DNA from: Actinomycetota bacterium | Lineage (GTDB): Bacteria > Actinomycetota > AC-67 | DNA length: 40,382 bases | Assembly: GCA_020201525.1 (NCBI GenBank) | Contig: JAIVGO010000102.1 | Location: 1 to 40,382, forward strand | Reading direction: 5' to 3' | Shown: one piece after another, positions 22,066 to 24,649 of the stretch | Layout: each line of letters starts with the position of its first letter | How positions within the stretch are numbered: the first letter of the stretch is position 1 | Program-made: the position numbers and the translations under genes | The notes under the pieces: generated by a model | Databases searched by the model: none | Told to the model about the DNA's origin: nothing | What the model saw: only the letters and a program-made list of their open reading frames with translations

Positions 22066-23288
22066 ACGTGGATCCGTTTTCTGGGTCGTCGCTGGAAGAT
22101 CCGTACCGGCTGTACGAGAGGCTCCGACACGACGCACCCGTGTACCAGCTGCCGGAAACCGGCATCTGGTTTGTGACGCGTCACGACGATCTGGTCGAAG
22201 CGGCGAGTAAGCCCGAGATCTTTTCGAGTCACATCTCCGCGATCGTGTACGCAGGAGCTGGGACGAACGCAGTCGTCGTGCCCGCCGATCCCGACGCCAT
22301 CGGCGCCGTGGACGTGCTCGCAACACAAGACCCGCCGGTGCACACCGCGCAGCGCAAGCTGCTCAACCGTGCATTCGTCGCGTCGCGTATGGCGCTTCTC
22401 GAGCCGCAGATCGTCGCGCTCCTCGATGAGAAAATCAGCCCTCCGCTTGCGCGCGGAACCGTCGAATGGATGGAAGAGATCGCGAATCCGCTTCCGGTCT
22501 CGATGATCGCCGGCCTCCTGGGATTACCCCAGAGCGATCTCGGACGGCTGAAGGCGTGGGCCGACGCGGGTATCGACCTGTTGTCGGGCGTATCGACAAT
22601 GGAGCGGATGGCCGACGCATGGCAAGAGATGATCGGGTTTCTTTCGTACTTGCGCGAGCGGCTCGCGACGCCGGCGCCCGAATCGATCACGGCGACCATC
22701 GCCGAGGCCGTTGCGCGCGGCGACTTGTCCGATCGCGAAGGCGTGTCGCTGCTGCTGCAGCTCGTCATTGCCGGCAGCGAGTCGACCGCCGGCTTGCTCG
22801 GCAGCGCCGCCCGCAGGCTTGCAGAAGACGAGGAGCTGCAAGATTCGCTCCGAAAGGACCCAGCACGGATTCCGGTCTTCCTCGAGGAGTCGGTTCGCCT
22901 CGAGTCGCCGTTCCGCGGGCATTTTCGGGTGACCACTCGGGAGACGGAACTCGGCGGCGTGAAGCTCCCGGAAGGTGCGCGCGTCATGCTGATGTGGGGT
23001 TCGGCCAACCGCGACGAGAAGGCGTTTGCGAACGCCGGCGCCGTCGATATGGAACGCGAGCACCCGTACGCTCACGTCGGTTTCGGATCCGGGATTCACT
23101 TTTGCATTGGAGCGCCGCTGGCACGGCTGGAAGCGAGGATCGTCGTTCAGGCGCTCCTAGAACGCACGACGACATTCCGGCTATCCCGTGGTGCGCCGTC
23201 GCCGCGCCACGTTCCGAGCGTCTTCGTGCGCCGCCTGACGCACTTGCACCTCGAGCTTATTTCGTCAGGTGACGCTTCAGTCGCTTGA
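22056..23288 (+). CDS. Cytochrome P450
   Basis: A 410-residue soluble bacterial P450. The oxygen-activating I-helix motif is AGSEST, the K-helix ExxR is EESVR, and the haem loop is FGSGIHFCIGAPLARLE with Cys350 as the haem ligand. TQDPPVHTAQRKLLNRAF is the typical C-helix region of class I enzymes. It needs a ferredoxin and a reductase, neither of which is in the window. ATG 22056 or ATG 22062 (which overlaps the NUDIX stop as ATGA) is the start. Its end overlaps the convergent arsR gene by 32 bases. Substrate unknown. Confidence 0.95.
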   Translation: MAMNVDPFSGSSLEDPYRLYERLRHDAPVYQLPETGIWFVTRHDDLVEAASKPEIFSSHISAIVYAGAGTNAVVVPADPDAIGAVDVLATQDPPVHTAQRKLLNRAFVASRMALLEPQIVALLDEKISPPLARGTVEWMEEIANPLPVSMIAGLLGLPQSDLGRLKAWADAGIDLLSGVSTMERMADAWQEMIGFLSYLRERLATPAPESITATIAEAVARGDLSDREGVSLLLQLVIAGSESTAGLLGSAARRLAEDEELQDSLRKDPARIPVFLEESVRLESPFRGHFRVTTRETELGGVKLPEGARVMLMWGSANRDEKAFANAGAVDMEREHPYAHVGFGSGIHFCIGAPLARLEARIVVQALLERTTTFRLSRGAPSPRHVPSVFVRRLTHLHLELISSGDASVA

Positions 23289-23574
23289 GGCGCGCATCCC
23301 ATTCCGATCCGGCCTCCGCCATCCACGCGACGGCTTCGCTCATCGGCTCCGGCGTCAAGTGAAACCGAACCTCTCGCCCGTCGCGTTCTCCCGCCACCAG
23401 ACCGGCATCGCCGAGGGTCGATAGATGCTTCGTGATGGCCTGTCGCGTTACCGGGATGTGCTCTGCGATCTCGGTCGCAGTCATCGCGCCGTTTTCGGTC
23501 AGCACGGTGACGACCTTGCGCCGCGTCTCGTCGCCGAGCGCGGAAAACACTGCGCCGATCTTCTCGTCCTTCAT
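23257..23574 (-). CDS. ArsR family transcriptional regulator
   Basis: A 105-residue winged-helix repressor. MKDEKIGAVFSALGDETRRK opens the fold, and the recognition helix region is VTRQAITKHLSTLGDAGLV near residues 42-60, then REVRFHL in the wing. It has no Cys at all, so it is not a thiol-type metal sensor; it belongs to the ArsR set cotranscribed with AHSA1/SRPBCC genes. ATG 23574 overlaps the SRPBCC stop (ATGA). It very probably binds the two GCAACC-N4-GGTTGC palindromes (23965-23980, 24008-24023) upstream of its own operon and of clpP. Confidence 0.92.
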   Translation of the reverse strand: MKDEKIGAVFSALGDETRRKVVTVLTENGAMTATEIAEHIPVTRQAITKHLSTLGDAGLVAGERDGREVRFHLTPEPMSEAVAWMAEAGSEWDARLKRLKRHLTK

Positions 23575-23951
23575 CTGGTGACTCCGATTGTCTCATGAAC
23601 GGCCGGCACATCCGTTCCGGTCTCTCGCACGGTGATCCTCGTTCCGTCGCGTTCTTCTTCGAGGTCTATCTCGACGCGGCTTCCGGGAACCCGCACCGGC
23701 CCTCGCGTCGTACGCACGAAAGGCATCCAGCGGAACGCGAGGCGACGGCCCGGAACCACTTCCTCGATTGTGACGCCTCGCACCGCTCCGTCCTCCCACG
23801 AAAATTCGATGTGCGAGCCGGGCTCGATCCGTTCGACGCGGGCGGTCGCGCCGAACCATTCCGACAGACCGTCCGGCTCGACGAGCGCCTGCCACGCGAC
23901 ATCGGAACCGACGTCCACGACGACGGACTTCTCGACGAAGGGCGGTTTCAC
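23571..23951 (-). CDS. SRPBCC/AHSA1 family protein
   Basis: A 126-residue START-like protein of the AHSA1 group. It starts MKPPFVEKSVVVDVGSDVAW and has the family DGLSEWFGATARVERIEPG and a following sheet-rich part (HIEFSWEDGAVRGVTIEE). The ligand is unknown, but the pairing with an ArsR repressor suggests that it binds or modifies a small hydrophobic compound that also releases the repressor. GTG 23951 lies exactly 6 bases after a perfect TATAAT box, so the mRNA is probably leaderless. Its stop overlaps the arsR start. Confidence 0.88.
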   Translation of the reverse strand: MKPPFVEKSVVVDVGSDVAWQALVEPDGLSEWFGATARVERIEPGSHIEFSWEDGAVRGVTIEEVVPGRRLAFRWMPFVRTTRGPVRVPGSRVEIDLEEERDGTRITVRETGTDVPAVHETIGVTR

Positions 23952-23957
23952 GGGGAC

Positions 23958-23963
23958 ATTATA
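23958..23963 (-). promoter_or_regulatory. TATAAT -10 box of the SRPBCC-arsR operon
   Basis: Consensus TATAAT on the minus strand, 6 bases before the GTG at 23951. TGGACG, 18 bases upstream, is a fair -35 box. The palindrome at 23965-23980 fills the spacer between the two boxes, so a bound repressor would block RNA polymerase. Confidence 0.65.
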
Positions 23964-23964
23964 T

Positions 23965-23980
23965 GCAACCGCTTGGTTGC
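23965..23980. promoter_or_regulatory. Operator 1, perfect palindrome GCAACC-N4-GGTTGC
   Basis: GCAACC, GCTT, GGTTGC. It lies between the -35 and -10 boxes of the SRPBCC-arsR promoter and overlaps the -35 region (TTGCGC, 23977-23982) of the candidate clpP promoter. Confidence 0.7.
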
Positions 23981-24005
23981 GCGTCCAGCTTTGACGAGCT
24001 AGCAT
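23977..24005 (+). promoter_or_regulatory. Candidate clpP promoter
   Basis: TTGCGC (23977-23982), 17-base spacer, TAGCAT (24000-24005). The predicted start near 24012 lies inside operator 2. Confidence 0.4.
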
Positions 24006-24007
24006 GA

Positions 24008-24023
24008 GCAACCCAATGGTTGC
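24008..24023. promoter_or_regulatory. Operator 2, perfect palindrome GCAACC-N4-GGTTGC
   Basis: GCAACC, CAAT, GGTTGC. Its centre is 43 bases from that of operator 1, about four helix turns, so two dimers would sit on the same face. It ends 5 bases before the AGGAGG ribosome site of clpP. Confidence 0.7.
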
Positions 24024-24040
24024 ACCTTAGGAGGCGAGCC

Positions 24041-24649
24041 ATGAGCGAAGTCATCCCTCTCGGGCCCGGCGCGCGCGCACCGGAACGCATCGAAGATACG
24101 GCTCTCACCGTGCTGTTTCGCCGGCGGACGGTGTTTCTGCGGGCGCCGATCATGGACAACGTCGCAGGAGACGTCGCCGCCCAGTTGCTCGCACTCGATC
24201 ACATTTCCGACGAGCCGATCACCCTCTATATCGATTCACCGGGAGGCGACATCAGCGGGCTCTTCACGATTCATGACACGATGCAAACGCTCCGGTCGAA
24301 GGTCAACACGCGATGTCTCGGCATGGCCGCGTCGGCGGCGGCCGTCATCCTCGCCGCCGGCACCGGCGTGCGATCGGCGACGCCGAATGCCCGCGTGATG
24401 CTGCACCAGCCGGCCGGCGGCATTGGGCGAGGAACGGCGAAAGACATCGAAATCGCCGCGAAAGAGTTCCTTTTTCTCAAGAGGCGGCTCGAAGAGATCC
24501 TCGCCGAGCGGACGGGACAGTCGATCGACAAGATCCGGGACGATACCGACCGCGACTTTTGGATGTCAGCGCAAGAGGCCCTCGAATACGGAGTCATCGA
24601 CGAGATCGCGACCCCGGAAACCACGACGCGATCGGCCTCTTCGAAATAG
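24041..24649 (+). CDS. clpP: ClpP family ATP-dependent protease subunit
   Basis: A 202-residue ClpP peptidase. The triad is complete and at the usual positions: Ser98 (GMAASAAAV), His122 (MLHQPAGG) and Asp172 (TDRDFWMSA). YIDSPGGDISG near 63-73 forms the oxyanion strand. AASAAAV instead of AASMGA marks it as a paralogue rather than the best-known housekeeping form. No clpX or second clpP is adjacent, so it may be an accessory ClpP. The ATG at 24041 has a perfect AGGAGG 6 bases upstream. The two palindromes in front suggest control by the ArsR encoded divergently. Confidence 0.93.
   Translation: MSEVIPLGPGARAPERIEDTALTVLFRRRTVFLRAPIMDNVAGDVAAQLLALDHISDEPITLYIDSPGGDISGLFTIHDTMQTLRSKVNTRCLGMAASAAAVILAAGTGVRSATPNARVMLHQPAGGIGRGTAKDIEIAAKEFLFLKRRLEEILAERTGQSIDKIRDDTDRDFWMSAQEALEYGVIDEIATPETTTRSASSK

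What the first reader, a model, noticed from the sequence alone, without database searches (positions are those of the whole stretch)
23965..24023. Twin GCAACC-N4-GGTTGC operators between an SRPBCC-arsR operon and clpP
Two perfect copies of a 16-base palindrome, 43 bases apart centre to centre (about four helix turns), lie in the divergent control region. One fills the spacer of a consensus TATAAT promoter for the SRPBCC-arsR operon and overlaps the possible clpP -35 box; the other lies on the predicted clpP start. I noticed no other copy in the window. A Cys-free ArsR repressor would thus control both its own operon and a ClpP protease, linking sensing of a hydrophobic ligand (via the SRPBCC protein) to proteolysis. 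The link to clpP is my inference.
Basis: partly seen in the sequence, partly recalled or inferred. Interest (0 to 1): 0.7.

Follow-up and report, generated by a model that had tools for sequence, protein, structure and literature searches.

The report
ArsR repressor twin operators controlling clpP
Two copies of a short mirror-image DNA word between a small repressor operon and a protease gene are very probably the repressor's binding sites; the same paired sites recur beside the same kind of repressor in many bacterial phyla, and in one large group of actinobacteria they are built into the promoter of an extra ClpP protease gene.

Summary
Two perfect GCAACC-N4-GGTTGC palindromes lie 43 bp apart in the 89-bp gap between SRPBCC-arsR and clpP, and nowhere else in the 3.7-Mb genome. 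So the twin word is very probably the operator of a widespread, apparently undescribed class of SRPBCC-linked ArsR autorepressors. Its recognition helix carries a near-invariant R-Q, and relatives with other residues there have other palindromes of the same layout.

In one ArsR clade (14 families, 28 genera in the window's phylum, probably Actinomycetota) a second, catalytically intact clpP lies divergently. There, 19 of 30 loci have TTG(op1)-N16-18-TANNNT pointing at clpP (0.55 expected by shuffling; 2 of 61 in loci without clpP): op1 supplies the clpP -35 box and op2 covers the start site. The window has exactly this (TTGCGC-N17-TAGCAT). The clpP in this slot comes from several ClpP lineages, while ArsR fits one clade, so the slot was refilled repeatedly. 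ArsR control of clpP is well supported by sequence, not by experiment. The hydrophobic-ligand idea is untested.

The parts
23965..23980 (.). Operator op1, GCAACC-GCTT-GGTTGC; its GGTTGC half supplies the TTG of the clpP -35 box
24008..24023 (.). Operator op2, GCAACC-CAAT-GGTTGC; covers the predicted clpP start site and, in most clpP-linked relatives, the SRPBCC start site as well
23977..23982 (+). clpP -35 box TTGCGC, overlapping op1
   Evidence: sequence; TTG-N16-18-TANNNT in 19/30 clpP-linked loci against 0.55 expected
24000..24005 (+). clpP -10 box TAGCAT, 17 bp from the -35 box
24029..24034 (+). Ribosome-binding site AGGAGG of clpP
   Evidence: sequence
24041..24649 (+). clpP paralogue, Ser-His-Asp triad intact, lacks the FDIYSRLL N-terminal motif
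23958..23963 (-). TATAAT -10 box of SRPBCC; would give a leaderless GTG mRNA; not conserved in relatives
23982..23987 (-). Weak -35 box TGGACG of SRPBCC, 18 bp from TATAAT
   Evidence: sequence
24024..24029 (-). Alternative SRPBCC -10 (TAAGGT) abutting op2, the position conserved in clpP-linked relatives
   Evidence: TANNNT abutting op2 in 21/37 clpP-linked and 1/69 other loci
23571..23951 (-). SRPBCC / AHSA1-like protein, GTG start; its end overlaps the arsR start (ATGA)
23257..23574 (-). ArsR-family repressor, 105 aa, no Cys, recognition helix TRQAITKH

Best explanation
The two palindromes are operators for the ArsR protein encoded next door. A dimer on each blocks both divergent promoters: op1 forms part of the clpP -35 box (and lies in the SRPBCC promoter or leader), and op2 covers the clpP start site and, in most relatives, the SRPBCC start site. 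The repressor thus shuts down its own SRPBCC-arsR operon and an accessory ClpP protease subunit together. An unknown signal, perhaps presented by or acting through the SRPBCC protein, releases it so that both are made. Shown here: the sites, their conservation, their link to this ArsR class, and the promoter geometry. Inferred: binding, repression, the signal, and what ClpP degrades.
For: Twin unique in the genome. 111 of 120 twin sites found without using annotation lie by SRPBCC and/or ArsR. ArsR homologues of at least 120 bits with enough upstream DNA have divergent clpP in 26 of 29 loci, nearly all with the twin sites. A clpP-directed TANNNT lies between the operators in 35/37 clpP-linked loci against 6.5 expected and 19/69 elsewhere (Fisher p 6e-12). 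TTG(op1)-N16-18-TANNNT occurs in 19/30 against 0.55 expected and in 2/61 loci without clpP. Recognition helix R-Q is near-invariant with GCAACC sites, and other residues there go with other palindromes. Linked ClpPs are not one clade (AU p 1e-61) while linked ArsRs fit one (AU p 0.56). Triad intact.
Against: No binding or expression data. The closest relative with clpP (G004, L006) has twin sites but no clear TANNNT at the 17-bp position. A few ArsRs of the same clade have palindromes but no clpP alongside (L163, L185, L188). The -10 scoring uses a generic sigma-70 consensus. No effector is known.
Confidence: 0.8

Rival explanations
1. The twin operators serve only SRPBCC-arsR autoregulation; clpP is a passive neighbour with its own independent control.
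For: In most phyla the same twin operators stand before SRPBCC-arsR or arsR with no clpP (81 and 21 loci). Some ArsRs of the same clade lack clpP.
Against: Clp-linked loci have a different layout: a clpP-directed -10 between the operators at 17-18 bp from the TTG of op1, absent elsewhere. The window gap is 89 bp, leaving no room for a clpP promoter clear of the operators. The slot holds ClpPs of several lineages yet keeps the layout.
Confidence: 0.14
2. The palindromes act as RNA hairpins (leader or terminator elements), not as protein-binding sites.
For: Each can form a 6-bp hairpin; op2 lies in the predicted clpP leader.
Against: Single-sided changes that break RNA pairing in the SRPBCC transcript (C..A, 13 of 37 at op1) outnumber those that keep a wobble pair (T..G, 2 of 37). 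The word covaries with the ArsR recognition helix and has one layout in loci with quite different transcript geometry.
Confidence: 0.02
3. Another DNA-binding protein of the cell, not the adjacent ArsR, reads the sites.
For: Binding was not tested.
Against: The sites follow this ArsR class across ten phyla, appear as a pair only at this locus in the genome, and their letters change with the ArsR recognition helix. The ArsR Rv2034 of M. tuberculosis binds a palindrome of similar layout with a 4-bp spacer (PMC3338718).
Confidence: 0.04

Closest known systems
Rv2034 of Mycobacterium tuberculosis (ArsR; operon Rv2034-Rv2035-Rv2036, Rv2035 with a polyketide_cyc2 domain), PMC3338718
   Same: ArsR autorepressor in an operon with a START/SRPBCC-type protein; binds inverted repeats separated by 4 bp near its start; second targets elsewhere (dosR, phoP).
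   Different: Operator letters CCGTAAGT-N4-ACTTACGG, not GCAACC-N4-GGTTGC; no twin sites reported in the passages read; arsR comes first in the operon; no clpP target reported there.
ArsR/SmtB metalloregulators (CmtR, NmtR and others)
   Same: Winged-helix ArsR fold; generic NCBIfam HTH_metalloreg passes its cut-off.
   Different: The window ArsR has no Cys, there is no conserved Cys in relatives, and no metal-transport gene alongside.
ClgR, CtsR, HspR and PopR control of clp genes (from general knowledge)
   Same: A dedicated DNA-binding protein controls a clp protease gene.
   Different: Those regulators belong to other protein families; no ArsR control of clpP was found in the library searched.
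ArsR-family structures 2OQG, 3F6O, 3F6V
   Same: Closest solved structures by sequence (2OQG E 2e-16).
   Different: Named only as possible or probable regulators; operator and function not given in the search result.

Membership tests
ArsR family of transcriptional repressors | ArsR-type winged-helix DNA-binding domain | tested here: met
   PF01022 35.8 bits (cut-off 22), NF033788 73.9 (cut-off 55)
ArsR family of transcriptional repressors | Palindromic operator at its own promoter, bound by the protein | tested here: inconclusive
   Operators present and conserved; binding itself not testable here
Metal-sensing ArsR/SmtB subgroup | Conserved Cys metal ligands | tested here: not met
   No Cys in the window protein and none conserved in A1
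SdpR autorepressor family (NF033789) | Score above the curated cut-off | tested here: not met
   64.2 bits, cut-off 100
ClpP protease | CLP_protease domain with Ser-His-Asp triad | tested here: met
   PF00574 212 bits; triad present in all linked copies with the position filled
Housekeeping ClpP equivalog (TIGR00493) | Score above equivalog cut-off | tested here: not met
   181.5 bits, cut-off 308.6; a higher-scoring ClpP is encoded elsewhere in the genome
AHSA1 / SRPBCC protein | AHSA1 domain above gathering score | tested here: met
   PF08327 49.1 bits, cut-off 22.1
Rv2034-type ArsR regulon | Operator CCGTAAGT-N4-ACTTACGG | tested here: not met
   Similar spacing, different letters

The most novel reading that the evidence does not exclude
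A broad, so far undescribed regulatory class: SRPBCC-linked ArsR repressors in ten phyla reading paired GCAACY-N4-RGTTGC operators. One actinobacterial clade rebuilt its control region so that an operator half-site doubles as the -35 box of an accessory clpP, and this slot has been refilled by different ClpP lineages. Together these would form a dedicated, inducible proteolysis module.
Probability: 0.6. Interest if true: 0.7.

Novelty: new variant of a known kind. Interest (0 to 1): 0.6.

Why it matters
It gives a widespread group of orphan ArsR repressors a predicted operator that can be searched in any genome. It also names a specific protease gene as a target in actinobacteria, where accessory ClpP subunits usually have no known inducer. 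Finding what releases this ArsR would show when these bacteria call on the second ClpP.

Tried and rejected
Metal sensing rejected for lack of Cys. RNA hairpin reading rejected. The idea that the linked clpPs are one inherited family was rejected by the AU test. The TATAAT promoter next to op1 as the general SRPBCC promoter was rejected because it is not conserved. Two flavobacterial loci (L073, L087) with clpP about 650 bp away were set aside as not adjacent. ArsR loci that first seemed to lack the twin (L191, L195, L197, L198, L201, L203) proved to have it with a 3-bp spacer. One Pfam call failed on a wrong frame. Literature searches found nothing on SRPBCC-ArsR-clpP; subscription journals are mostly missing from that library.

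Full report
What is there. A relaxed twin pattern finds only this place. They sit in the 89-bp gap between the GTG start of an SRPBCC/AHSA1 protein (minus strand, 23951) and the ATG of clpP (24041). SRPBCC and arsR overlap by 4 bp, so they are very probably one operon. The ArsR is a small winged-helix protein without cysteine.

What the palindromes are. Of 120 stretches, 82 lie beside both ArsR and SRPBCC, 19 beside ArsR only, 10 beside SRPBCC only and 9 beside neither; several of the 9 look like local repeats or are cut by contig ends. The 111 come from Actinomycetota, Bacteroidota, Pseudomonadota, Acidobacteriota, Bacillota and five further phyla. The paired word is therefore very probably the operator of this ArsR class. 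The recognition helix of twin-site ArsRs is [TS]RQ[AG]xxKH, with R-Q in all but one of 141 proteins. More distant ArsRs pulled in by the same profile, with R-P, R-F-G or L-T there, have GTAACC-N4-GGTTAC, GTGACC-N4-GGTCAC or TGAACC-N4-GGTTCA before their genes. These last are few and should be read as a hint of a recognition code. Six SRPBCC-linked ArsRs that seemed to lack the site have it with a 3-bp spacer.

The link to clpP. With an ArsR profile from clpP-linked loci, 397 genomes of the phylum were searched. Among hits of at least 120 bits with enough upstream sequence, 26 of 29 have clpP divergent from SRPBCC-arsR. Linked loci cover 14 family and 28 genus codes; all named clpP-linked loci from the blind scan are Actinomycetota, several of them Thermoleophilia, which is why I take the window to be actinobacterial. 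Nearly all have the twin sites, 24-53 bp apart and most often 41-43.

Promoter geometry separates clpP-linked from other loci. In deduplicated GC-rich sets, a TANNNT box reading toward clpP lies between the operators in 35 of 37 clpP-linked loci (shuffle expectation 6.5), but in 19 of 69 others (expectation 16.7) (Fisher p 6e-12). For operators at least 33 bp apart, the sequence TTG (from op1) - 16 to 18 bp - TANNNT occurs in 19 of 30 clpP-linked loci against 0.55 expected, most at exactly 17 bp, and in 2 of 61 others against 1.5. So one half of op1 serves as the clpP -35 box, and transcription should start in op2. The window has TTGCGC-N17-TAGCAT. In the SRPBCC direction, a TANNNT abuts op2 in 21 of 37 clpP-linked loci and in 1 of 69 others: both start sites then fall within op2, where one repressor dimer would block both. 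The window's own TATAAT beside op1, which would give a leaderless mRNA, is an extra not seen in relatives.

ClpP itself. The genome has a higher-scoring, canonical-looking ClpP elsewhere (286 bits) and this one (212 bits). In all 15 other genomes checked in which ClpP was found, a clpP beyond the linked copy is present. Catalytic Ser, His and Asp are present in all linked copies with the position filled. The window's copy and L006 lack the usual FDIYSRLL segment. The linked ClpPs are not one clade (lnL lower by 239 when forced, AU p 1e-61), while the linked ArsRs are compatible with one clade (AU p 0.56). The simplest reading is that clpP was replaced or converted several times at a slot whose control region stayed. 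Gene conversion between paralogues would also produce this pattern, but still requires the slot to be kept.

Mechanism, with status. Shown by sequence: operators, their association with this ArsR class, and the built-in clpP promoter. Inferred: ArsR binding and repression of both directions. Unknown: the inducing signal, whether SRPBCC feeds back on ArsR, and the ClpP substrates. AHSA1 is named after an Hsp90 co-chaperone, so a proteostasis link is tempting, but most bacterial SRPBCC proteins of this type have no known ligand or partner (general knowledge).

Comparison. The nearest described regulator found is Rv2034, an ArsR autorepressor in an operon with an SRPBCC-type protein, whose operator has inverted repeats 4 bp apart but different letters (PMC3338718). 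I found no paper on SRPBCC-ArsR control of clpP. The finding is a new variant of a known kind: an autoregulatory ArsR with a divergent target gene, where the target (an accessory ClpP) and the twin operator are new as far as this library shows.

Noticed in passing
L210, L218, L224, L205, L212 upstream regions: Distant ArsRs with other recognition-helix residues carry GTAACC, GTGACC, TGAACC or GACACC palindromes with the same N4 layout: a possible ArsR recognition code.
   Followed up: partly
L191, L195, L197, L198, L201, L203: SRPBCC-arsR operons with twin GCAACY-N3-RGTTGC (3-bp spacer) instead of N4.
   Followed up: partly
L037, L042, L048, L101, L103 and similar: The SRPBCC-proximal operator has a spacer that makes a Shine-Dalgarno sequence (GCAACC-AGGAGG-TTGC), so operator and ribosome-binding site are one.
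   Followed up: no
L040, L044, L053, L062, L107, L112, L130: Loci, mostly Bacteroidota, with arsR directly behind twin operators spaced exactly 26 bp and no SRPBCC between.
   Followed up: no
L183 and L255 (G118): Two divergent ClpP genes in tandem next to the ArsR locus.
   Followed up: no
G002 (same family as the window): No ClpP match at E 1e-30 in a 94% complete genome; missing from the assembly or truly absent.
   Followed up: no
L052, L131, L147, L092: Near-identical twin GCAACC-type palindromes with no ArsR found nearby, apparently local repeats.
   Followed up: no
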